A DNA stretch of 64,000 nt from Terriglobia bacterium (GTDB lineage Bacteria; Acidobacteriota; Terriglobia; Bryobacterales; Bryobacteraceae), in assembly GCA_025350105.1 (NCBI GenBank), contig JANXYJ010000014.1, forward strand, positions 1-64,000, in the 5' to 3' direction. Each line of letters opens with the position of its first letter. Position 1 is the stretch's first letter. The position numbers and the translations under genes were made by a program. Below the pieces are notes generated by a model. It searched no databases. It had not been told where the DNA came from and was given only the letters and a program-made list of their open reading frames with translations. Shown piece by piece: positions 52,883 to 64,000 of the stretch.

Positions 52883-53608
52883 CTATTTCTTGGTATCGGC
52901 GGCCGCCGGCGCGTCCGCCGGCATAATCGACGCCGAGATGATGCGATCCAGGTTGGGGAAAGAACGATCAAGATACGGCTTACCCTGTGCGGTGATGCGG
53001 CCTTGATCCGGTGATTCACCATATCCAGCGAAAAATTTGTCCACCAGATCCATTCCTTCAAGCACGGTGCCGAAGGGAGCGAAACCCTGCCCATCCAACG
53101 ACGCGTTATCGCTATAATTGATGAAAATTTGCGTCGTGCGTGTGTTGGGTCCGGCAGTGGCAAAGGTCAACGTGCCGCGTTTGTTGGATTCGAGGACGCG
53201 ATCGTCTGGAATGCGAGCGTTCTCCCAAACGGCCGTTACTTCAGGCCGGGCACTGATCCCGAACTGAGCTACAAAGCGCGGAACAATGCGGAAAAATGCG
53301 GCGTTCGTATAGAAACCGTACTTCACTAAATTGTAAAATCGATCCGAACCGAGTGGAGCCCAACCCCGATTGACCTGAATAATCACATCGCCCTTCGTGG
53401 TGGTCAACTTCACCTTATAAGTATCAGGCGCCTTGTCTTTCAGCGTGCCGGGGTTCAGCAAACTCTTCGCCGTTGGAGCAGCTTTCGGTGCAGCCTTTGT
53501 TGGCGCAGGCGTGGGAGCCTTCTTCGAAGCAGGGGTCTGGGCCAGCGCGATTCCACACGCCAGCAGCGTCAGGGTCAAAATCTTTTTCATAAGGATCTGG
53601 ACCATCAT
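52883..53608 (-). CDS. Exported cyclophilin-type peptidyl-prolyl isomerase
   Basis: After a signal peptide (MKKILTLTLLACGIALAQ) and an Ala/Pro/Lys-rich linker of about 40 residues, a cyclophilin domain begins at 'YKVKLTTTKGDVIIQV'. 'FFRIVPRFVAQFGI' carries the catalytic Arg, and 'GPNTRTTQIFINYSDNASLDGQGFAPFGTVL' completes the active-site region. The ATG at 53608 overlaps the M24 peptidase stop by four bases; a second ATG at 53590 starts directly at the signal peptide. It should act in the periplasm. Confidence 0.9.
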   Translation of the reverse strand: MMVQILMKKILTLTLLACGIALAQTPASKKAPTPAPTKAAPKAAPTAKSLLNPGTLKDKAPDTYKVKLTTTKGDVIIQVNRGWAPLGSDRFYNLVKYGFYTNAAFFRIVPRFVAQFGISARPEVTAVWENARIPDDRVLESNKRGTLTFATAGPNTRTTQIFINYSDNASLDGQGFAPFGTVLEGMDLVDKFFAGYGESPDQGRITAQGKPYLDRSFPNLDRIISASIMPADAPAAADTKK

Positions 53609-54780
53609 AACAAAACCAGTTTCTCTTGACTTTCGCCCGTCACCCGTGCGCCGTCCTCAGACACGAAGACGTCCACTTCGCAGCGAATGCCAAACTCCGG
53701 CAGGTAAACCCCGGGCTCCACCGAAAAACAGGTCCAGGGAATCACTTTGCGCTCGTCATGGGTTTCCAGATAGTCCATGTTGGCACCGGTGCCGTGCACT
53801 TCTTCGCCAATGGAGTGACCGGTGCGGTGATAGAAATAATCGGCGAGTCCGTGCCCGGTGATGTGCCCGCGCGCGGCGTCATCCACTTGATAGCCGCGCA
53901 AGTCCTGCCTGTTCCTCACGCCGTCGATCACGCGCTGCACGGCCAGGTTGCGCGCATCCCGCACAATCTCAAAAACGTTTTGATATCTGTCCGGCGGCGC
54001 TTGCCCGCAATAGCCCACCCAGCAAATGTCGTAATAAACACTATTGGGCCGATTCAACTTAGCCCATAGATCGATCAAAACGGTATCGCCGATTTTGATC
54101 TCCGCGCATTGATCTTTTGAAGGCTCGTAGTGGGGATTGGACGCGTTCGCGTTCACCGCACAATCCGGCCCATGATCTGCAATTAAACCCTCTGCCGCGA
54201 ATCGACTGCGTATGAATTCACAAACAGCAAACTCAGTAATGCGTTCCTTGATTCGCAGTCGCTCGCTGATTTGCGAAAACGCCTGCCGCCGCACTTCGTC
54301 CACTTTGCGCGCCGCCTCCAAATGCATGTCCAATTGCTCCGGCGACCAGCGCGATTCAAACGTCTGAACCAGATCGGCCGACGTCGAAACCTCAAGGCCC
54401 AAACTGCGAATTAGCTCAAGGGTTCCACCATCCACCAGCGACACGTACGGCACAGAACAATTTTGCGAATACTGCATTGCGATGCGCCGCGCACTCCCGA
54501 CGATCAGCCGCAAACCGTCCACCAGCGAACTCCAACTGGTGTAGGTCTTTCGCGCGCCTGGCAAGTCGGCAAGGGTGTGTTCTTCGATTTTGTGGACCAA
54601 TCCGTAGGGCTCGCCCGTCGCTGGTACGAAGTAGAACCACCGGCGCGTCACGGGCGAACCGGGAGTAAATTGCAATACGCGATAGCCCAAAGGGTCCCGC
54701 CGATGATGATCGAAAAACAGCCAACCGTCCAACCCGGCCTCGCGCAGAGCAGCTTGAATGGAATGAATTCTGGAGTTCAC
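53605..54780 (-). CDS. M24 family metallopeptidase (Xaa-Pro aminopeptidase-like)
   Basis: The 391-residue enzyme has a creatinase-like N-domain and a pita-bread catalytic domain. The five metal ligands can be traced: Asp in 'TVLIDLWAKLN', Asp in 'SVYYDICWVGY', His in 'TGHSIGEEVHG' or 'ITGHGLADYF', Glu in 'CFSVEPGVYLPEFG' and Glu in 'IRCEVDVFV'. It probably removes N-terminal residues before proline in the cytosol. It lies next to the end of the tail module on the same strand, and its stop overlaps the cyclophilin start. Confidence 0.88.
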   Translation of the reverse strand: MNSRIHSIQAALREAGLDGWLFFDHHRRDPLGYRVLQFTPGSPVTRRWFYFVPATGEPYGLVHKIEEHTLADLPGARKTYTSWSSLVDGLRLIVGSARRIAMQYSQNCSVPYVSLVDGGTLELIRSLGLEVSTSADLVQTFESRWSPEQLDMHLEAARKVDEVRRQAFSQISERLRIKERITEFAVCEFIRSRFAAEGLIADHGPDCAVNANASNPHYEPSKDQCAEIKIGDTVLIDLWAKLNRPNSVYYDICWVGYCGQAPPDRYQNVFEIVRDARNLAVQRVIDGVRNRQDLRGYQVDDAARGHITGHGLADYFYHRTGHSIGEEVHGTGANMDYLETHDERKVIPWTCFSVEPGVYLPEFGIRCEVDVFVSEDGARVTGESQEKLVLL

Positions 54781-54828: not shown

Positions 54829-57816
54829 TCAGTTGCCAACCCGAATCACCCGGCGAGGCAAACGATTCAACGGCGCGCCGTAGCCAATCAAACAAAACTG
54901 GTCCAGCGCAAACAGAACCACGCTTTCCAGACCATTACCTAGCGCGTATTGCGCCTCCTTGAGCCAAGCCGCGTAGGAATCGCCAATACCCACCAGATGG
55001 CTTCGTTGACTGGCCGAAAAGGCCAAACTGGATCCCGAAGATGCCATGCCGTATAGGATGGTCTGAATGCTTTGATCCAGATTCTTGCCGAACGTAAAAC
55101 CGAAAGCTTCCGTCTTCAGGTTCGTGAGTTTCGCCGGTGTCCAATCGGAAGCTGGATAGTTGATCAATTTGTTAAACGCCGTTTGATTGACGTCGGTCGG
55201 ATACAGAACTTCAAACCTGCAATTGGGGTACGTCGCGCGCACATGGCTGATCACCGCTGACGTAAAATTGCCAATCACTTTTGGCAGATACGCAACCTCA
55301 TCCGGAACCGTTGCCGGGTCCACCGTATTCGTCGTGATGGTGGCCATCGTATGCCCGAATTGGGCTTGAAACTGGCTCTGGTTCTGCGCATCGTAAAACG
55401 GCATCCCGGAAAAAGTAACGCCCAACCCATCATTCGGAAAGTACCACCACTGCACTTCGCCAAACTGAAGAAACGGAACCAGCCCAGCCGCCACCTGCAA
55501 ATCCGCCATTCCTAAATAGACATCCTGCCAATACGCCAGACTCACCGGCGAAAAATTGGTTTGCAGCGAGGGCGTCGGTAACAGAATCGGATCGCCCGCC
55601 GGACCTACCTGCGCAATCCCAACCGCCGCCGATGGATCTCCGTTTCCCAACTCCATACTGAACGCCGCAGCCACGTCAATACCGTAATTCTGCAACGCGA
55701 TGTAGTACGCCGTGCTCCAATCGCGCGCCGCACGGTTCATGCGCGGAGACACCGTCAGGTCCGTGCGCCAGTCACCATCCACCCCTCCGGTGAATGCAGC
55801 GCCAGAAGCTGTCACGGTAAACCCGGCGCTCGTCGTCGACGCGGCAATCGTGTTCGAATTGCCGGCAGTTCCCATCACGCGGGAATGAATCGTCAGTACT
55901 CCACCGGCAGCTTCCGCCCAAAATCCTGTATAGCCGCGGCCTAATTCCAGCGCGTATACGGCCGCTATCCTGCTCGCCGTATCACCAACATGAATTAGCT
56001 TGGTCAATGCCGTTCCCGCAACCGTCACCGTCACTGAAAAGTTGGGCTGCGGGTTGCCCGTGAAGGTAACGGTTGCCGATGCGTATTGATGCCCCGTGCG
56101 AACCAACTCGTAAAACCACAACGCACCCGTATAGTGATTCGCCCTTCCAGTGAAGCCCAGACTCTGCAGGAACCACGCCGTGCGTTCCGGTGCAATGGAA
56201 ATCGAATGCAACGTATCCCAATCCGTCGCAAGCGTCGCCCTGGACGTTGCCGCAACCGTCGGCAACGTCGACGATGGAACGGCCAATTCCACAAAATCGA
56301 AATAGAAATCGCCAACGTTGGTGCTGGTCACCGTGACGGTGTGGTTCCCCACGCCATACTGCCCTAAAGGCCAACGAACCAGCGCATCTTCTCCGGAAAC
56401 CAACAAGTTCAATGTGCCGGCGGCAATCCCATCCACGGTAAACGCAACGGTCGCTCCGTTGCCGGTGAAGCGCGTCCCCACGTACAGCGTATGAGAATGC
56501 AGCGTGGTGTACCCGCATGTCACGAAATTCCCACTCATCGTCGAATGGTGAATCGTGCCTCCGGAATAGTTTCCTCGGACTTCAGACCACACCGCGTAGA
56601 CACTAACGCCTGCGGCATGCGCCGCCGCGACACTGCCGTTCATGGCGCGGGTAACGGTGAACACCGTACCTCCGCCCGCCACGCTGGTAACGATCATCAA
56701 TTCGTTGTCGATCTTCAGCAGGTCGCTCACCTGCGCCGTGCTCGGTGTGGATAGATGAATGGTGGTATCGGCAATCGCCACGCCACTGGCCAGCACCGGA
56801 GCGCTTGCCGCTACCAATGCATCGTGATACCCGACGCCCGGGGCGTTGTTTTCGATCCGCTGGCTTCCCGGACTGGCAACACTATAGACGCGATTGCTTC
56901 CCGTCACGGTCCAATTCGAAACCACCACCTGAAATTCCGTACGCACGAAGGCCGCCGCCTGCAAATCCGCGGCATAGGTCCAGCGCAACTTCCGGATGTT
57001 CGTTGTTGGGATGCTGTGCAGCGTTCCGTTGAGATCCGGAGTCAAGGTACCCTGCAACGAACTGAAGTCCAGGGAAACGCTCCATTGGGTTGGCGACGCC
57101 CCTCCGCTCAGCGTTCGTTCGACCGCATCCCAAGTTTCCGCGCCGGTCGAGTACGAATAGACGCCAACTCGATTTCCATTCACGCCCGTGGTGCTCGCCG
57201 CAAGCGTAGCGCCAGCGGTGTAATAGACCCGAACGGTTGCCCCGCTCGAGGTCGCCCGCAGAACCGTTGAAAAAGTATTGATGATGTCCCGGATCGCGGC
57301 CGCCGTCGTAGTCAGTGTGTCCACACCCAACACTTGATAGGTGTAGTGCTCCGTCAGCGTCGCCAGGCCCACATAGTCGCCGCTGGCCAGTGTGCCCGAC
57401 AAAGTGAAATCCGCAAAAGCGTTTTGATAAGCGCCTGCAACGGAGGTGGCGTGCAGCTTCAACGGCACCCAATAGATCGTCTCACTGCCGCCGGTTGGTG
57501 TGGCCCACACGCGCAGGCTGGGCCAATCCACGGTGGCGAACAGATCCGAATCGAGCGTGATGCAATTCGTACGGGTCTCTTTATATGTCAAGACCAGCCC
57601 GCTCAAGTCTCCGTCTGGCAAGTTTCTGAACGAAGGGTGTTCGTAAACGTTGTCGCGATTCCACTCCACCACGGCCCAATCGAACTGTTGCCGCCAACTT
57701 CCCGACAATGTGAACCCGTTCGCACTCGCGCTACTGAACGCCGCAATCGCAGAGGGCTGAAAATAGAAGCACTGCAAGTCTCGGTCGGGGCTTAATTTCT
57801 GAATGGATGACGGCAT
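54829..57816 (-). CDS. Large tail/fibre protein with putative glycan-acting C-terminal domain, 995 aa
   Basis: This last gene of the tail module encodes an elongated beta-rich protein. The N-terminus 'RDLQCFYFQPSAIAAFSSAS' has no signal peptide. Around residues 336-409 is a 70-residue module ('VLASGVAIADTTIHLS', 'LLKIDNELMIVTSV', 'RAMNGSVAAAHAAG') that recurs in the preceding tail-tip protein. Residues from about 740 ('YWQDVYLGMADLQVAAGLVPFLQFGEVQWWY') have the aromatic-rich look of a TIM-barrel glycosidase-like domain. It follows the tail-tip gene by 15 bases. Receptor binding or cell-wall cutting is inferred from position and composition. Confidence 0.7.
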   Translation of the reverse strand: MPSSIQKLSPDRDLQCFYFQPSAIAAFSSASANGFTLSGSWRQQFDWAVVEWNRDNVYEHPSFRNLPDGDLSGLVLTYKETRTNCITLDSDLFATVDWPSLRVWATPTGGSETIYWVPLKLHATSVAGAYQNAFADFTLSGTLASGDYVGLATLTEHYTYQVLGVDTLTTTAAAIRDIINTFSTVLRATSSGATVRVYYTAGATLAASTTGVNGNRVGVYSYSTGAETWDAVERTLSGGASPTQWSVSLDFSSLQGTLTPDLNGTLHSIPTTNIRKLRWTYAADLQAAAFVRTEFQVVVSNWTVTGSNRVYSVASPGSQRIENNAPGVGYHDALVAASAPVLASGVAIADTTIHLSTPSTAQVSDLLKIDNELMIVTSVAGGGTVFTVTRAMNGSVAAAHAAGVSVYAVWSEVRGNYSGGTIHHSTMSGNFVTCGYTTLHSHTLYVGTRFTGNGATVAFTVDGIAAGTLNLLVSGEDALVRWPLGQYGVGNHTVTVTSTNVGDFYFDFVELAVPSSTLPTVAATSRATLATDWDTLHSISIAPERTAWFLQSLGFTGRANHYTGALWFYELVRTGHQYASATVTFTGNPQPNFSVTVTVAGTALTKLIHVGDTASRIAAVYALELGRGYTGFWAEAAGGVLTIHSRVMGTAGNSNTIAASTTSAGFTVTASGAAFTGGVDGDWRTDLTVSPRMNRAARDWSTAYYIALQNYGIDVAAAFSMELGNGDPSAAVGIAQVGPAGDPILLPTPSLQTNFSPVSLAYWQDVYLGMADLQVAAGLVPFLQFGEVQWWYFPNDGLGVTFSGMPFYDAQNQSQFQAQFGHTMATITTNTVDPATVPDEVAYLPKVIGNFTSAVISHVRATYPNCRFEVLYPTDVNQTAFNKLINYPASDWTPAKLTNLKTEAFGFTFGKNLDQSIQTILYGMASSGSSLAFSASQRSHLVGIGDSYAAWLKEAQYALGNGLESVVLFALDQFCLIGYGAPLNRLPRRVIRVGN

Positions 57817-57831
57817 TGTTTTGGCCCTCGC

Positions 57832-60800
57832 CTACAGCCTGATGGTCACCGTGAGGTCGCTTCCAGGCAACGTGTTGGCTGCGCCGGGCACCGAAGTGAT
57901 GTCTAAATTAAGTTGCGCATTTGAAACCAGCGGCGGTAATCCGAAGCCATTCACGATGTTCGAAACCGTAGCTCCATCTGGGATGGTCAACGTGCAGTAG
58001 GTAGTTGCATTCTGCCTCACCGTGAGTTGAATCGATCCGCCGGCAGGCGCTTGGCCGACTGTCGCGAAGATATCGCGGGCGGCATACGTTTTTTCGATGA
58101 TGAATGGCGGCGTTGCGTTGGTTTGGATGGCCAGATATCCATCTACCTGCAACGAAATCTGCCCGCCCGCAAGCGTGCGCAGACCGTTGTCAAGCGTTGA
58201 TCCAAAAGACAGGTGGCGCACCAAACTGTTGCCGATGGAGTTTGTGACATAGAATTCCGCGGCGCCAATGCGCACATCCGGAAGATAGATGGAGTGCAGA
58301 TACCCGCCACTCGCTGGTGTTCCGAAGAACTTCGGGATGAAGGAAACGGACGTACTGGTCGGCTGCATCCGATAAACGCTGGCCCCAGCAGAGTGAATTG
58401 TGGCTGTGCTGTTGTGCACCGCCCTGGCCACATTCAATGTGGTCCCGCCGCTTTGCACACCCGTTACCATCAGCATCTCACCATCGATTTGCAAGGAATC
58501 GTTTACCGCCGCCAACGTTGTCGCGGACAGTGTGATCGTCGAATCCGCAACGGCCACGCCGCCGGCCAGCACCGGTGGCGCGGGATTCAACTCGCTCCAG
58601 GAATAGATGGTCAACGTTCCCGCGCTAATCGTATTCGTGTTGGTCAAGCTGGGAAACGAAATCCCCAATAGATCCACGCTTCCCTGCCCGGCCAAACCCA
58701 AACCAAACAGCGGCAGCGGTGCCACGTCATAGTCGACGCTGATGACACCACCGCTACCAATCTGCCAATCGGTCAAGGGATTCAGTCCGGCTGGGCTCTC
58801 CTGATCCTTGGCATTGGCCGACCGTGCTGATATCTGCACCGTTTGCCCGCCCCAATTTGGCACTTGAATTTGCACGGGGCTACTGGTGCCCACAGCACCA
58901 AAATTCCAGCCAGAATCGGCGACAACAAACAAGCTGGTTGCATCCGGTGTCGTGGTCCACGCGGGAGTAATCGTCAAGACCGTTCCCGTGTTTGCGGTGG
59001 TGGTCCGCTCTTGCCCAGCGCCAGTGCCGCGGGAAATTCGCGCCACGGCCCCAGCAAAAGTATTCGGAGTCATTCCCAATGTGCTGTTGCCAATCGTCGT
59101 GGACGTGAAGATGTCCGCGCCCACTTCCGGCTGCAACTCGCGCCGCCAGTAGATATTCGCGTGGTCATAGTTGCCGTCCGGCGGGCCCACCAGTTGTGCG
59201 GTCGAACCCGCATCGACGAACGTCGCGGCAAGAGCGTGATTCGAAGCAATGCGCAACAGTTCAGAAGGGTTTGTTCCTCGGTAGACGTTGAAACTGGTCG
59301 TACCGGGCGAAAACGTCAGGCCCAAAAGCGTCACTTGATTTGTGCTAGTCCCTGACGGAATCGAGGCCCGAACCACAAAGGACAAGCCGCTCTCGCCACC
59401 GCTCGCGTCTACCGCCGTCACGGCGTAGTACAAGTTTTGATTTCCCGCGATCGTTCCGCCCGTCGGCGCCAGCGTTGGGCTCAAACTCAACAACGGAATC
59501 GCTGCGCTTGTGCTCGACGGTTTCGTCGGGGTAATGAAGCTGACATTCAGCGCCACCGCACTGCCGGTCGCGCCTTGAATCACGCTCTCCGTGATTCCAA
59601 ACTGATCGATTCCGTGCGCATCCAGAACGCTGCCAATCAACGGCCTTGGGATGGTCGCGTCAGAGTTGCCGCCAGGCTGCCCGCCCGTCACATCGGACCC
59701 ACTCAATCCGTACCACGCATCATCGTGCCATTGCGCCGTCACTTGAACGGTTAGATAGTTTTTCGCCGGCACCAACCTCACCACTCGAAACGGTTGCCTA
59801 CTCAGCCCTTCTTTACCATAAGTGACCGTGATCAAATCGCCCGGCGCCAAGCCAACACCCCGCACACTGGTCTCGAATTCGACGAAGGTGTAACCCACCA
59901 ATGTCTTCGCCAGTTGCAATCGCAGCACCCGCGCTGCCTGATCGAAGTTCGCGACACCAACCGCCGGAAATGCCGCAGTCACTTCTCTACTGGTCAACGT
60001 CGAATCCGTAGCATCCACCAGCGACAAACTGTCCTGTTGGTATTGATTAAACTCGTCCTGAAATTCAACCGTAAGCCGGTTTGGCGTATCGGCGCCGCTG
60101 CGCGCCCACAAGCGCAGCGTCGGCTCGCCGCTCGACCTCCGTGCGATACCGCCCGTTGCTGCTGTGTCGCCAAATTCGTACGCCGGCCAACCACCGTTCA
60201 AGGTCTGTGTCCCGTTTCCGCCCGCAGCCTGCGTCGGTTGCTGCAAGGCAAACGTATTTTCCGCATCCAGCCGCAACAAACCAGTGCGGCCGTAACGGAG
60301 TAACAACATAGAACCATTGCGAATGCCCTTTACAACCTCAGCCGCGCTCCGCCGATTCTGAATCACTAGATTGCATTCAAAACGCGGAACCACCACATTG
60401 TTCCCGTACAGGTCCTTGGTCGTGATCGCCGCGCCCAGGTATTGTGCGGCGGCCGCAAAGCTCAGCAGATCCAACTCGCTCTTCAACCAACCACTTCGCC
60501 GCAGCACGTCCAGCAGCACCCAAGCCGGATTGTTCGTGAACGACTCACCCAATGACGCGCCCACGGAATCGAACGCCTCCAACTTGATTCCATTCACCAG
60601 AACGCTGATCTTTGGCAACGAATCACCATTGCTGATTTGATTCGGCAACACCACGCTCAGCATCGCCATATCGCCGTACGGATCGCCCAGCGGATTGCCT
60701 TGGCCATCGGTAAAGTTGTAATCGAACGCGCCGGTTCGCGTTCCTGCGGTAATCAGGTTGTACCATCCAGTGGCCGTCATGTTCACGCCACTTTGCCCCA

Positions 60801-61749
60801 GCGGAATCTCAACGCCATTCGCAATAACCTTAATGACGCCCGCAATCTCCCCCATTCCAAGCAGGACTTCCAATCGGGTGAGATTGCCATCATTGCGTGA
60901 AAACACAATCGGCGGCCGATACCAGGCCGTACCGTAGACCAGCGGTACAAAGTCGCTGTAGCGCGCTTGATTGTCCACCAGCGGGGAAAGGTGTGATCCC
61001 TTTTCGCCATAACTACGAACCTGAATTTGCGCAGGAACGTACTCCACTCCACCAAATCTTGCGGTTGGATGATTCGCCGCATCCACGTTAAACATTCCAC
61101 GTGCCTGGCATGCACTCCGCGTGTAATCGCAACTGGTGAAGACCGCCGCTCCATTCAGATTCCCTACTCCCGACGGCTGATCCGCGGAGTAACCGCATCG
61201 ATATGCCGCGGAATATTTACCGTTTGCCCCGCCGCTCAGCGCATCGGCTCTCTGCTGCGCGGTCGCCGGAAAAGTCCAAGGGCAGCGCCGCTCAATCTGC
61301 ACTTCCGGTAAGATTACGCGTTGCAGACTCAAACGGCTCGTGAACGTCACTCGGAATGCCGACTCCGTAATCTCTTCCGGCGGATTCCCCACACCGCGGA
61401 AGATTACCCTCAGCTCCGAAGCCGCGCTCGCGCTCGCCAAATCGTAAAACAAGAAGCTGATGGTAACTTGCGCGCCTTTGAAACCAGTCTGGCGTTCCAG
61501 TTGTGAATAGTGCGAGTCCGCATTCGCCAGCGTCGCCGTAATTTTCTGCGGTGCATCCAACCCATCGTCCGACGAAGACTGCAACACGAATAGATTGTGC
61601 TGCAGCAATCGAGCCGAGTACAGGTTACCGCCCACGGTCACCGCGTGCGTGCTCCACCGCTCCACTTGTCCGGATGAGAGCTTGCAATCGAAAAGAAACA
61701 GTGGGGTCGGCGGCGTCTCTTGTTCTTTTAGTTGATCGATGGTCGGCAT
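57832..61749 (-). CDS. Tail tip protein: gpL-like iron-sulfur region fused to gpJ-like tail tip, 1305 aa
   Basis: The first 240 residues resemble lambda minor tail protein L. Four cysteines, Cys156 ('RRCPW'), Cys185 ('YRCGYSAD'), Cys207 ('TSCDY') and Cys214 ('SACQA'), then 'FGG', follow the pattern that binds a [4Fe-4S] cluster in gpL. Residues from about 280 to 720 match tail-tip attachment proteins ('DFVPLVYGTAWYRPP', 'VEFQDEFNQYQQDSLSL', 'GDLITVTYGKEGLSRQPFRVV'). The rest has fibronectin-like ('LYYAVTAVDASGGESG', 'FNVYRG') and repeated modules. L and J are separate proteins in lambda, so this is a probable fusion. Spacing to neighbours is 15-22 bases. Confidence 0.8.
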   Translation of the reverse strand: MPTIDQLKEQETPPTPLFLFDCKLSSGQVERWSTHAVTVGGNLYSARLLQHNLFVLQSSSDDGLDAPQKITATLANADSHYSQLERQTGFKGAQVTISFLFYDLASASAASELRVIFRGVGNPPEEITESAFRVTFTSRLSLQRVILPEVQIERRCPWTFPATAQQRADALSGGANGKYSAAYRCGYSADQPSGVGNLNGAAVFTSCDYTRSACQARGMFNVDAANHPTARFGGVEYVPAQIQVRSYGEKGSHLSPLVDNQARYSDFVPLVYGTAWYRPPIVFSRNDGNLTRLEVLLGMGEIAGVIKVIANGVEIPLGQSGVNMTATGWYNLITAGTRTGAFDYNFTDGQGNPLGDPYGDMAMLSVVLPNQISNGDSLPKISVLVNGIKLEAFDSVGASLGESFTNNPAWVLLDVLRRSGWLKSELDLLSFAAAAQYLGAAITTKDLYGNNVVVPRFECNLVIQNRRSAAEVVKGIRNGSMLLLRYGRTGLLRLDAENTFALQQPTQAAGGNGTQTLNGGWPAYEFGDTAATGGIARRSSGEPTLRLWARSGADTPNRLTVEFQDEFNQYQQDSLSLVDATDSTLTSREVTAAFPAVGVANFDQAARVLRLQLAKTLVGYTFVEFETSVRGVGLAPGDLITVTYGKEGLSRQPFRVVRLVPAKNYLTVQVTAQWHDDAWYGLSGSDVTGGQPGGNSDATIPRPLIGSVLDAHGIDQFGITESVIQGATGSAVALNVSFITPTKPSSTSAAIPLLSLSPTLAPTGGTIAGNQNLYYAVTAVDASGGESGLSFVVRASIPSGTSTNQVTLLGLTFSPGTTSFNVYRGTNPSELLRIASNHALAATFVDAGSTAQLVGPPDGNYDHANIYWRRELQPEVGADIFTSTTIGNSTLGMTPNTFAGAVARISRGTGAGQERTTTANTGTVLTITPAWTTTPDATSLFVVADSGWNFGAVGTSSPVQIQVPNWGGQTVQISARSANAKDQESPAGLNPLTDWQIGSGGVISVDYDVAPLPLFGLGLAGQGSVDLLGISFPSLTNTNTISAGTLTIYSWSELNPAPPVLAGGVAVADSTITLSATTLAAVNDSLQIDGEMLMVTGVQSGGTTLNVARAVHNSTATIHSAGASVYRMQPTSTSVSFIPKFFGTPASGGYLHSIYLPDVRIGAAEFYVTNSIGNSLVRHLSFGSTLDNGLRTLAGGQISLQVDGYLAIQTNATPPFIIEKTYAARDIFATVGQAPAGGSIQLTVRQNATTYCTLTIPDGATVSNIVNGFGLPPLVSNAQLNLDITSVPGAANTLPGSDLTVTIRL

Positions 61750-61771
61750 AGGCCCCTAACGTCTCCGTCTC

Positions 61772-62572
61772 TTAAAATGCGGTGTTCGCGATAATCCGGA
61801 TGGTCGCGTCAAATACATCGCTTGACTGCGCCGTCGAGGTCAGTTGATCCGTGGCGAATCTCGCCTTGCTGAAGACGCCACTGAGTGCGCCCGTCGTCTT
61901 GTAATCAGACGGCCCCAACTGCCCCTCCAACTGCAGACCATAAACTTCGATCGCGGCCCCCGCCGGAAGTTTGATCGCAGCCATAACGCCAGCCCCTGAC
62001 CCCACTAAAGGCACGCCACTCAGTAACACTCTTTGCCAATTTGAAGTGACGGTGATGGGCTTCGCCAACACCGTCGCCCCCGCCTGCAAAGACAATGTCG
62101 CGGCACCGGCGCTCGCGCTCCGCAACCATGTGCTCCAGCAGTAGCGATATCCTTGCGGAACATTCACCACCTGCCCAATCCCCGCGCTCACCGCTGACCC
62201 GTTCGTCAGCCTCGTCGCATTCGCCCCGCCGAGCGGGTCAGAAATATTCGCCGTCAGCGCAACCGACGCGTCTTTCGCCCAAATCGCTTGCGTCAAATCC
62301 TGACTGAACGCAACCAAATTTCCCACCGGATCCAGAAACGTGAACGTTCCTAATCTTCCAGACACTTGGGAAAAAAGCGTCTCGATCGCATCCCACTCCG
62401 CGCGGGTCATCCCCTGGGCCGTCAATTCCCATAGCGATTGATCTCCGTTCGCATCGGAGTAAACATCTTGCCGTCCGTCGTCCAACAGATTAACTACCGT
62501 CCGGTACGCCGTATGCTTGGTCAGCGGATACATCGCGCAAGCCCCGGTGATGAGTTGTGGAAATGCCAGCAT
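61772..62572 (-). CDS. Second gpM-like minor tail protein with carbohydrate-binding-like extension, 266 aa
   Basis: The N-terminal 95 residues align by eye with the gene before it: 'FPQLITGACAMYPL' against 'FPLLKTGAIAQYGA', and 'FTFLDPVGNLV' against 'FSFTDPWDGTV'. After that it carries about 150 residues typical of a beta-sandwich ('RYCWSTWLRSASAGAATLSLQAG', 'TSNWQRVLLSG', 'IEVYGLQLEG'), the form of carbohydrate-binding domains on tail proteins. It starts one base after its paralogue, so both come from one message. Confidence 0.75.
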   Translation of the reverse strand: MLAFPQLITGACAMYPLTKHTAYRTVVNLLDDGRQDVYSDANGDQSLWELTAQGMTRAEWDAIETLFSQVSGRLGTFTFLDPVGNLVAFSQDLTQAIWAKDASVALTANISDPLGGANATRLTNGSAVSAGIGQVVNVPQGYRYCWSTWLRSASAGAATLSLQAGATVLAKPITVTSNWQRVLLSGVPLVGSGAGVMAAIKLPAGAAIEVYGLQLEGQLGPSDYKTTGALSGVFSKARFATDQLTSTAQSSDVFDATIRIIANTAF

Positions 62573-62573
62573 G

Positions 62574-62933
62574 CTAAGTCCTGTTCTCCTTCACCGTCAG
62601 CGCAACGCGGCCTCGTCCCGGCTCGCGAAATTCCGTGGCCAAATCATCCATCCCGAAACTGCAGTTCGCATAGACAGTTCCATCCCATGGATCGGTGAAC
62701 GAAAATTGCCCACCCCTGCCTGCCTCACCGGCAAAAAACTGTTCCAGTTGGGTAAGCTCATTCTCATCCAGCAAATCCAAGCGGATGGTCCACACGCGCA
62801 ACGCGGAGGCGTATTCCGGAATCCGTTGCTCGCTGCCATCCAGAAAGCGTACAACCTTCGTCGAAAACACTCGCGTGCGGCTCGCTCCGTATTGCGCAAT
62901 CGCGCCGGTCTTTAACAACGGGAAACTGGCCAT
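62574..62933 (-). CDS. gpM-like minor tail protein, 119 aa
   Basis: The protein reads 'FPLLKTGAIAQYGASRTRVFST', 'LDGSEQRIPEYASALRVWTIRLDLLDE' and 'GRGGQFSFTDPWDGTVYANCSF', the pattern of small siphovirus minor tail proteins of the lambda gpM/DUF2460 kind, which link the tail tube to the tip. The position, after the tape-measure-like gene and before the L/J gene, agrees with lambda order. Spacing of two bases to each neighbour shows a tightly packed operon. Confidence 0.78.
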   Translation of the reverse strand: MASFPLLKTGAIAQYGASRTRVFSTKVVRFLDGSEQRIPEYASALRVWTIRLDLLDENELTQLEQFFAGEAGRGGQFSFTDPWDGTVYANCSFGMDDLATEFREPGRGRVALTVKENRT

Positions 62934-62935
62934 CG

Positions 62936-63544
62936 TTAGACCTCCCGAATAACATCGTTCAGAACCGTGGTTTCAAGCATGGCCTGACGCACCGCGTTCG
63001 CAATGTCCTGGCTGTGATCCATGAACGATTTGCTGTCCATGGCCTGAACCTGTATCGTCACCTGCTGTCCCGCACTCGTTCCATTCGAGCCGTTCAAAGT
63101 CGAAGCGCTGGAATTCGTAATCGGCCTCGGCAAACCACCCTGTGCCGAATCGACTCCGAAAAGCCCACTCCCCGACTCACTCACGCCCGCAGATAGATTG
63201 ATCGCTGCTGGCGGGATGTAACTGCTCAATGTCGGTACCGGCGACGAACCGCCACTGAAGAGCCCTTCAATCCCGGAAATCAGCGGGGCCAACCCAAATC
63301 CGCCCAATAGACCACCGAACGTACCCAAAGTCGAAGACAGCGCCGAACCAATCGATGGTCCGCTCGATTGCCCTCCACTCTGCACTGCGCTCTGCGATAG
63401 AGCTGCGTTTCTCTCCGCCGCCAGCGCATCATTGATGGCTTTCAGTTGCTGCAATTCGTCGGCGATACTGATCAGCTGTTCAGTCCCGTTGGAGCTTCCC
63501 CGCAGCAAACCCGCCAAAATACTATTGGGATCATTGGACGCCAT
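62936..63544 (-). CDS. Short tape-measure-like tail protein, 202 aa
   Basis: The N-terminus is a charged helix ('LISIADELQQLKAINDALAAERNAAL'), the centre is a Gly/Ser/Leu-rich hydrophobic stretch ('STLGTFGGLLGGFGLAPLISGIEGLFSGG') and the C-terminus is helical again ('DIANAVRQAMLET'). This layout and its place between the tail chaperone and the gpM-like genes suggest the tape measure, which sets tail length. It is far shorter than lambda gpH (853 residues) but near the size of the tape measure in the Rhodobacter gene transfer agent (around 220). It overlaps the end of the frameshift extension by 14 bases. Confidence 0.6.
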   Translation of the reverse strand: MASNDPNSILAGLLRGSSNGTEQLISIADELQQLKAINDALAAERNAALSQSAVQSGGQSSGPSIGSALSSTLGTFGGLLGGFGLAPLISGIEGLFSGGSSPVPTLSSYIPPAAINLSAGVSESGSGLFGVDSAQGGLPRPITNSSASTLNGSNGTSAGQQVTIQVQAMDSKSFMDHSQDIANAVRQAMLETTVLNDVIREV

Positions 63545-63875
63545 TTTTCAATTCCTGCCATTCTTTTTGAATCATCAACAACGCATCCGCGTCTTTTGCT
63601 GCAAAATTTGCAAGATTTCCGCCGCCCATCTTCCAGGCGAAAAACTTTTCCACCCACTCCACGCTCTTCGGATCGATGAACGACGTTGGGCACTCCTCCG
63701 TGAACGCACTTCCTCTGCCCCAAATCACTCTCGGCGCCCCGCGCTGCTCTTGTGGCAGCCATCCACACCGCCGCGAAACTTCCAACCCCTGCCGTCGGCA
63801 CTGCTCGCACGTCCACCCAGCACGATTTACGCTCCCCGCTTCCGGAGCGCAAAAAAAATGGAATGCGACAATTAG
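63531..63875 (-). CDS. Tail assembly chaperone, -1 frame extension (GT-like)
   Basis: This frame continues directly from the slippery site and runs 114 codons to a TGA at 63531. It reads LIVAFHFFCAPEAG, then 'WTCEQCRRQG' and the track ORF that begins LEVSRRCGWLP. The track starts it at a TTG (63785), but the same frame is open back to the slippery heptamer and holds no ATG, GTG or TTG before that TTG. A start there would cut off the CxxC pair. The extension is best read as the T part of a G/GT-type chaperone, which recruits the tape measure. It overlaps the tape-measure start by 14 bases. Confidence 0.6.
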   Translation of the reverse strand, partial: LIVAFHFFCAPEAGSVNRAGWTCEQCRRQGLEVSRRCGWLPQEQRGAPRVIWGRGSAFTEECPTSFIDPKSVEWVEKFFAWKMGGGNLANFAAKDADALLMIQKEWQELKNGVQ

Positions 63876-64000
63876 TTTTTTCTTTCTTCTCCGCTCAACC
63901 CGCTCTCGGCTTTAATCCGAATCAGGATCTCCTTGGCCAACTCCATCGGGCCCCGGTCGATAAATGTATTCGGCGTCGCGTCCTCGCCATCAATCGTCAG
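63872..64000 (-). CDS. Tail assembly chaperone, zero-frame C-terminal end (G-like), cut by window edge
   Basis: The frame enters at the right window edge and reads LTIDGEDATPNTFIDRG, then 'MELAKEILIRIKAESGLSGEERKN' and TAA at 63874-63872. It is not in the ORF track because its start is outside the window. The position upstream of the tape-measure-like gene and the slippery sequence at its very end match the G protein of the lambda G/GT pair. No family can be named from 42 residues alone. Confidence 0.55.
   Translation of the reverse strand: MTIDGEDATPNTFIDRGPMELAKEILIRIKAESGLSGEERKN
63875..63881 (-). promoter_or_regulatory. Probable -1 programmed frameshift site A AAA AAC
   Basis: In the zero frame the codons are AGA AAA AAC TAA, so the heptamer A AAA AAC stands in the correct X XXY YYZ phase directly before the stop. 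GGAG lies seven bases upstream, similar to the internal Shine-Dalgarno stimulator of dnaX. A CGCTCC / GGAGCG hairpin lies about 25 bases downstream. The -1 frame then stays open for 114 codons. Confidence 0.65.

What the first reader, a model, noticed from the sequence alone, without database searches (positions are those of the whole stretch)
54829..64000. Minimal lambda-order tail module beside housekeeping genes
The order chaperone, tape measure, gpM-like (two), gpL/gpJ fusion, fibre follows lambda, packed with 1-22 bp gaps. No lysis, integrase or head gene is seen in this part, and neighbours on the left are dnaB, cyclophilin and M24 peptidase. A prophage, a gene-transfer-agent-like cluster or a siphovirus-derived tailocin would all fit.
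Basis: partly seen in the sequence, partly recalled or inferred. Interest (0 to 1): 0.8.

Follow-up and report, generated by a model that had tools for sequence, protein, structure and literature searches.

The report
Inherited phage-particle genes in Acidobacteriota
Soil bacteria of one acidobacterial family carry, and have passed down for a very long time, a compact set of genes for a small phage-like particle with a DNA-packaging motor but no genes for living as a virus, which suggests a domesticated gene-transfer particle in a bacterial group where none was known.

Summary
The tail module is real, but the window cuts it. On the same contig (C79) it continues to position 71,597 with a tail tube, chaperone, connector, P22-type capsid protein, scaffold, portal and both terminase subunits: 15 genes, 16.8 kb, one strand, no integrase on the contig. 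It is therefore not a tailocin. The same order occurs in 21 of 27 relatives examined, and the 14-gene core in 16 of 16 further genomes. A portal model finds it in 193 of 237 genomes of the family (172 at E<=1e-200), nearly always once, and it is almost absent elsewhere. Its tree follows the host RpoB+RpoC tree (6 of 7 supported host splits shared, no supported conflict). Genes are under purifying selection, the packaging ATPase and nuclease aspartates are invariant, and a -1 frameshift heptamer (A AAA AAC) is kept in all 38 informative genomes. Related true prophages in the same family have replication or methylase genes and, in one, a 999-aa tape measure. Best reading: a gene-transfer-agent-like element of independent origin, inherited vertically. 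Packaging of host DNA and its transfer are inferred, not shown. A 2025 paper probably saw the element as a 'Bryobacterales-specific provirus group'; the searches found no paper calling it a GTA.

The parts
54829..57816 (-). Fibre/tip protein, 995 aa: carbohydrate-binding-like and TIM-barrel domains (PF23845). Accessory: lost in some lineages, kept or fused in others
57832..61749 (-). gpL/gpJ-like fusion (baseplate hub), 1305 aa, Phage-tail_3
61772..62572 (-). second gpM/DUF2460-like distal tail protein (weak match) with an added C-terminal part, 266 aa
62574..62933 (-). gpM/DUF2460-like distal tail protein, 119 aa
   Evidence: 3.2e-13
62936..63544 (-). very short tape measure, 202 aa (171-219 aa in 20 sequences of relatives)
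63531..63785 (-). 'T' part of the tail chaperone, reached by -1 frameshift from the chaperone ORF
63875..63881 (-). slippery heptamer A AAA AAC, just before the chaperone stop codon
63872..64000 (-). tail assembly chaperone ('G' part), 135 aa; cut by the window's right end, reaches contig position 64279. The rest of the cluster lies beyond the window on the same contig C79 (L003 + 60000), minus strand: tail tube 64251-65432, completion-type 65446-65943, connector-type 65947-66795, capsid 66803-67714, scaffold-like 67728-68402, portal 68410-69840, large terminase 69880-71175, small-terminase-like 71172-71597
53605..54780 (-). M24 peptidase: host gene next to the cluster in this genus and several other genera (landmark, not part)

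Best explanation
A domesticated siphophage head-tail cassette that works like a gene transfer agent. When the operon is expressed in some cells, the P22-type coat with its scaffold and portal forms a small head. TerL, with a small terminase that has lost (or lacks) a sequence-recognising domain, fills it with pieces of the cell's own DNA. A short tail set by a ~200-residue tape measure, tipped by the gpL/gpJ hub and often a sugar-binding fibre, docks on relatives and delivers the DNA. Shown here: gene content, order, single copy, inheritance with the host, purifying selection, conserved frameshift site, intact packaging residues, and absence of integrase from the contig. Inferred: expression, particle formation, packaging of host DNA, release by lysis genes elsewhere, and delivery.
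For: Complete head + packaging + tail set. Same order in 21 of 27 relatives' genomes; 14-gene core in 16 of 16 further genomes. Portal model at E<=1e-100 in 193 of 237 family genomes, 70 of 76 genera. Phylum sample: 7 of 396 with the capsid, 2 of them in this genus and 5 weak. Cluster tree vs RpoB+RpoC, 20 genomes: 9 of 17 splits shared (shuffles: mean 0.21, maximum 4 in 5000 trials), 6 of 7 supported host splits shared, no supported conflict, Mantel r 0.825; nine genes singly r 0.70-0.92, 0 of 2000 permutations as high. dN/dS 0.04-0.27 where computable. Heptamer in 22 of 22 informative genomes plus 16 of 16; background 0.06 per kb per strand. TerL motif residues invariant in 25 genomes. Shared location beside M24. 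Contrast: related prophages in the same family.
Against: No particle, packaged DNA or transfer was observed. No lysis gene or regulator was found. The capsid protein alone is 74-79% identical to that of two true prophages, and one prophage copy falls inside the cluster's capsid tree, so some exchange with phages occurs. 44 of 237 family genomes lack the portal match at E<=1e-100, some by assembly gaps, some by deletion. The first tree attempt gave r 0.32 over all 20 genomes because a wrong RpoB frame was taken for one of them; corrected. The 38 heptamer genomes are related, so they are not independent events.
Confidence: 0.66

Rival explanations
1. The particle was domesticated for another purpose (for example killing or marking competitors, delivering protein, or absorbing phages), and the packaging genes are kept because the head is needed for assembly or stability.
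For: Conserved inheritance fits any useful particle. The fibre is kept or fused in frame in some genomes that lost the core, and the TerL-FIB fusion of G014/G021 is under purifying selection.
Against: TerL ATPase and nuclease aspartates are invariant in 25 genomes and dN/dS of TerL is 0.08-0.15, which points to real DNA packaging. No toxin or effector gene was recognised in the cluster by the Pfam and PHROG searches made.
Confidence: 0.19
2. A conserved but ordinary provirus lineage of Bryobacteraceae: degraded or satellite-like proviruses acquired repeatedly from one phage group.
For: Predicted as proviruses by others (PMC11924767 section 23, probable identity). True prophages with related capsids exist.
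Against: Mostly one copy, host-congruent trees, shared location in several genera, purifying selection, no integrase on the contig. In 80 IMG/VR contigs 89.9% of bases match the cluster or its flank genes, and the 8 leftover ORFs tested were of cellular type or unclear.
Confidence: 0.12
3. A siphovirus-derived tailocin (headless tail).
For: Within the window only tail genes are visible.
Against: Capsid, scaffold-like, portal and terminase genes adjoin in the same operon and are conserved in the copies examined.
Confidence: 0.02

Closest known systems
RcGTA and RcGTA-like elements (Rhodogtaviriformidae)
   Same: ~15-20 kb head-tail cluster, endogenous, vertically inherited, short tail, DUF2460-type distal tail protein and Phage-tail_3 hub (RcGTA gene content recalled; definition read in PMC9662315 sections 3, 6 (part 1), 10)
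   Different: Capsid protein is of the P22-coat family, not the HK97-MCP named for RcGTA g5; different phylum; lambda-like G/GT frameshift; no NlpC/P60 peptidase gene was recognised among the cluster proteins searched
FpGTA of Faecalibacterium (PMC12946183, section 9 read)
   Same: Operon with small terminase lacking a DNA-binding domain, TerL, portal, scaffold and capsid, found in all 12 Faecalibacterium genomes that paper examined
   Different: FpGTA is probably podovirus-like with a second locus carrying tail and lysis genes; here a siphovirus tail is in the same operon and no lysis locus is known
'Group (i)' Bryobacterales proviruses (PMC11924767, section 23 read)
   Same: Shared gene order, Bryobacteraceae hosts, includes Ca. 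Solibacter usitatus Ellin6076 and KBS 96; KBS 96 carries the element described here
   Different: Described there as proviruses; the text has no 'gene transfer'. Identity with our cluster is probable, not confirmed: the KBS 96 contig did not come back
Prophage-like regions of G080 and G177 (this work)
   Same: Capsid 79% and 74% identical, similar head gene order
   Different: Portal 34-35%, TerL 44-53%, a 999-aa tape measure (G080), DNA polymerase III beta clamp, cytosine methylases, HerA-like gene

Membership tests
Gene transfer agent (definition of PMC9662315) | Particle proteins derived from caudoviricetes | tested here: met
Gene transfer agent (definition of PMC9662315) | Genome endogenous in the host chromosome | tested here: met
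   Host genes on both sides, no integrase on the contig, also in single-contig genomes G194 and G195
Gene transfer agent (definition of PMC9662315) | Vertical inheritance and co-diversification with hosts | tested here: met
   exception: capsid tree admits one prophage
Gene transfer agent (definition of PMC9662315) | Encapsidates mostly random host DNA | not testable with these tools
   needs purified particles; the short small terminase without recognised DNA-binding domain is only suggestive
Gene transfer agent (definition of PMC9662315) | Cannot package its own whole genome (head too small) | not testable with these tools
   head size unknown
Gene transfer agent (definition of PMC9662315) | Delivers DNA to other cells | not testable with these tools
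   needs a transfer assay
RcGTA-like (Rhodogtaviriformidae) | HK97-type major capsid protein related to RcGTA g5 | tested here: not met
   capsid matches PF11651 P22_CoatProtein 4.9e-18; no match to an HK97-type Pfam family at or above its cut-off listed
Intact temperate prophage | Integrase, replication, lysogeny or lysis module with the head-tail genes | tested here: not met
   0 of 14 PF00589 matches on contig C79; neighbours are host genes; att sites were not searched for
Tailocin | Tail without head or packaging genes | tested here: not met

The most novel reading that the evidence does not exclude
A fourth or later independently domesticated gene transfer agent, from a P22-coat-type siphophage, has been kept throughout the family Bryobacteraceae (70 of 76 genera sampled) and mediates gene exchange among abundant soil Acidobacteriota; its fragments recur in public virus collections, where hundreds of contigs are filed as viruses.
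Probability: 0.6. Interest if true: 0.88.

Novelty: new member of a known kind. Interest (0 to 1): 0.76.

Why it matters
Gene transfer agents with a known genetic basis were grouped in three families from alphaproteobacteria and spirochaetes (PMC9662315), with a recent candidate in gut Firmicutes (PMC12946183). A family-wide element in Acidobacteriota would add a phylum and an independent origin, give soil microbiology a concrete vehicle of gene exchange, and mean that hundreds of 'viral' contigs in public collections are bacterial genes. Cultured carriers exist, so it can be tested directly.

Tried and rejected
Prevalence by capsid protein alone (198 of 237; 201 of 257 in the order) was replaced by the portal count, because true prophages share the capsid at 74-79%. 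Genus g33 genomes have capsid and a weaker portal match (1e-116 to 1e-183), and the four of them listed have no TerL at 1e-60; they may carry a divergent or mixed element and are outside the 172.

The 'with FIB' line and most 'ORDER DIFF' flags are artefacts: the reference set held the capsid-fibre fusion of G005. One search repeats without the fusions; there G226 still fails the order test because of an 80-residue fibre-type hit, and G194 has a fibre homologue on the other strand.

One search (RpoB alone, wrong frame in one genome) gave r 0.32 over all 20 genomes and 3 supported conflicts; one search replaces it. (IQ-TREE) failed on thread number and time, so support values are FastTree's SH-like ones. 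The dN/dS of the connector for G010-G013 came out infinite (failed) and is dropped; several other pairs had saturated dS.

The fibre's structure model is weak (mean pLDDT 69, pTM 0.44). Its best matches are phage N4 tail chains (E 2.6e-11 and 1.9e-10) and then glycoside hydrolases whose alignments have large rmsd, so only the domain type is used. No conserved promoter was seen by eye upstream of the small terminase. Amino-acid cost bias of known GTAs was not tested.

Reading that the element is new in print as a GTA rests on searches, which cover only open-licence papers. PMC5900883 (passages) lists prophages in KBS 96, Bryobacter and Solibacter without a GTA reading.
Full report
What is there. 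The window is positions 1-64000 of contig C79 (93,926 bp) of a 4.74 Mb, 206-contig genome. Reading on past the window (L003 = C79:60001-80000), the same strand carries the rest of the tail, the head and the packaging genes up to 71,597: 15 genes in 16,769 bp. PHROG and Pfam matches identify the large terminase (phrog_2, 1.7e-38), portal (phrog_145, 9.9e-51), capsid (phrog_283, 1.4e-44; PF11651 P22 coat, 4.9e-18) and a tail-tube-like protein (phrog_290, 1.7e-5). Scaffold, connector and completion proteins are named by position only.

Surroundings. To the left: M24 peptidase, cyclophilin and dnaB, then NHL-repeat, amidohydrolase and metallo-beta-lactamase-fold proteins. To the right: a DUF4139 protein, response regulator, S13 carboxypeptidase and MFS transporter, then ORFs that look by eye like degP, coaE, folD and other cellular genes. 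The genome has 14 matches to the integrase family PF00589, none on this contig. ARAGORN found no tRNA gene in the window.

Who has it. TerL was found in 37 of 61 near genomes: 21 of 23 of the genus (own included) and 11 of 14 of other genera of the family. The segments of 27 of these relatives were compared gene by gene: 21 have at least 13 of the 15 genes in the same order, the shortfall mostly at contig ends. Sixteen further genomes from long contigs, among them single-contig genomes, all have the 14 genes from small terminase to gpL/gpJ fusion. Named carriers are Bryobacterales and other Acidobacteria MAGs and the isolate KBS 96; a few records bear unlikely labels such as Arcobacter and Nevskia. 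In the family, the portal model matched 193 of 237 genomes at E<=1e-100 (121 of 148 of the best quality, 70 of 76 genera); my count from the list is 172 at E<=1e-200. In an even sample of the phylum the capsid model matched 7 of 396: the own genome, one of the same genus, and five weak ones. In the order, 3 of the 20 genomes outside the family have the capsid. In a class sample, TerL at E<=1e-60 matched 61 of 299, three of them outside the family.

Inheritance. A tree of nine cluster proteins in 20 genomes was compared with RpoB+RpoC of the same genomes. Nine of 17 splits agree (label shuffles: mean 0.21, at most 4 in 5000), 6 of the 7 host splits with support >=0.95 are also supported in the cluster tree, and no supported splits conflict. 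Patristic distances correlate at r 0.825 (all), 0.873 (family) and 0.848 (genus), above every shuffle. Each of nine genes alone gives r 0.70-0.92 with 0 of 2000 shuffles as high. The M24 neighbour, often with a Wzt-like polysaccharide-export ATPase in between, is also found next to the cluster in several other genera. Other genomes have it elsewhere, so it has also moved.

Signs of function. Pairwise dN/dS lies between 0.04 and 0.27 wherever it could be computed, lowest for the capsid. TerL keeps the residues that I recall as the Walker A glycine/lysine, Walker B Asp-Glu and three nuclease aspartates in all 25 sequences. The tail chaperone is followed by a second ORF in the -1 frame, with the heptamer A AAA AAC in the overlap in 22 of 22 informative genomes (one more has Ns) and just before the stop in most of them, and in 16 of 16 others. 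The heptamer's background is 0.06 per kb per strand. Here it lies at 63875-63881 and would give a fusion of about 250 residues. This is the G/GT arrangement of lambda (recalled) and shows that tail assembly has been under selection. The tape measure is 171-219 residues in 20 sequences. The small terminase has only about 50 conserved residues and no recognised DNA-binding domain, as reported for RcGTA TerS (PMC7947584, passages) and FpGTA (PMC12946183 section 9).

Comparison with viruses. Among 50,697 isolated-phage records the best capsid match is 25% identical and the best TerL match 34%. The 80 kept come from contigs of at most 21 kb; 89.9% of their bases match the cluster or its flank genes. 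The eight leftover ORFs tested match amidohydrolase, AMP-binding, glycosyl hydrolase, GSDH, sugar isomerase-like, glycosyltransferase-like, PALP and a below-cut-off tRNA_anti-like family. So these 'viral' contigs are largely the cluster with chromosomal flank. True relatives exist: two prophage-like regions, in G080 and G177, have capsids 79% and 74% identical to the cluster's but portals 34-35% and TerL 44-53% identical, a beta clamp, cytosine methylases and a HerA-like gene, and in G080 a 999-residue tape measure. They show what an uncurtailed phage of this kind looks like, and that the capsid alone cannot tell the two apart. One prophage capsid falls inside the cluster's capsid tree, so capsid exchange has happened or the protein is too constrained to resolve.

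Decay. Some genomes of the genus have lost most of the cluster by internal deletions that left in-frame fusions: TerL 4-92 to fibre 109-995 (G014, G021), TerL 5-263 to fibre 911-993 (G001), TerL 15-265 to fibre 618-677 at a contig end (G015), capsid 5-221 to fibre 340-994 (G005). The G014/G021 fusion is itself under purifying selection (dN/dS 0.099). The fibre is absent after the gpL/gpJ fusion in G195, G226, G233, G227, G255, G075 and G176. It looks like an accessory with a life of its own; why every fusion is in frame is not explained.

What it is called. By the definition in PMC9662315 (section 3) three features of a gene transfer agent are met (phage-derived proteins, endogenous, vertical inheritance) and three need experiments (random host DNA, incomplete self-packaging, delivery). 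It is not an RcGTA-like element by capsid family. PMC11924767 (section 23) reports a 'group (i)' of proviruses specific to Bryobacterales with shared gene order, including KBS 96 and Ca. Solibacter usitatus; this is probably the same element. I could not confirm it because the KBS 96 virus record did not come back. The searches made found no paper that calls it a gene transfer agent.

Verdict. A vertically inherited, selected, complete head-tail cassette is well supported (about 0.9). That it packages and transfers host DNA is the most likely use (0.66) but unproven.

Noticed in passing
L045:8465-10711 (G005), L077 and L078 (G021, G014), L300 (G001), L301 (G015): Internal deletions left in-frame fusions of TerL or capsid to the fibre; in all of them the frame is kept, and the G014/G021 fusion has dN/dS 0.099.
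   Followed up: partly
G010, G004, G028, G036, G255, G176 and others, just downstream of the fibre or gpL/gpJ fusion: A Wzt-like ABC ATPase (polysaccharide export type, named by eye) lies between the cluster and the M24 peptidase in many genomes, but not in the window's own genome. A link to a sugar receptor is possible.
   Followed up: partly
L468+L469 (G080) and L472+L470 (G177): Prophage-like regions with capsids 79% and 74% identical to the cluster's capsid but otherwise distant; likely the nearest living phage relatives.
   Followed up: partly
G044, between tape measure and first gpM-like gene: Extra genes inserted in the tail module, by eye a LamG-like and a right-handed beta-helix-like protein.
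   Followed up: no
window 54829-57816 and 57832-61749: The fibre and the gpL/gpJ fusion share a repeat of about 72 residues (51% identical), also matched by several tail families.
   Followed up: no
genus g33 genomes G105-G112: Capsid and a weaker portal match (1e-116 to 1e-183); the four listed in the class search have no TerL at 1e-60: a divergent or mixed element.
   Followed up: no
record titles: Two carriers are labelled Arcobacter and Nevskia soli, both apparently from metagenome binning; probably mislabelled acidobacterial bins.
   Followed up: no
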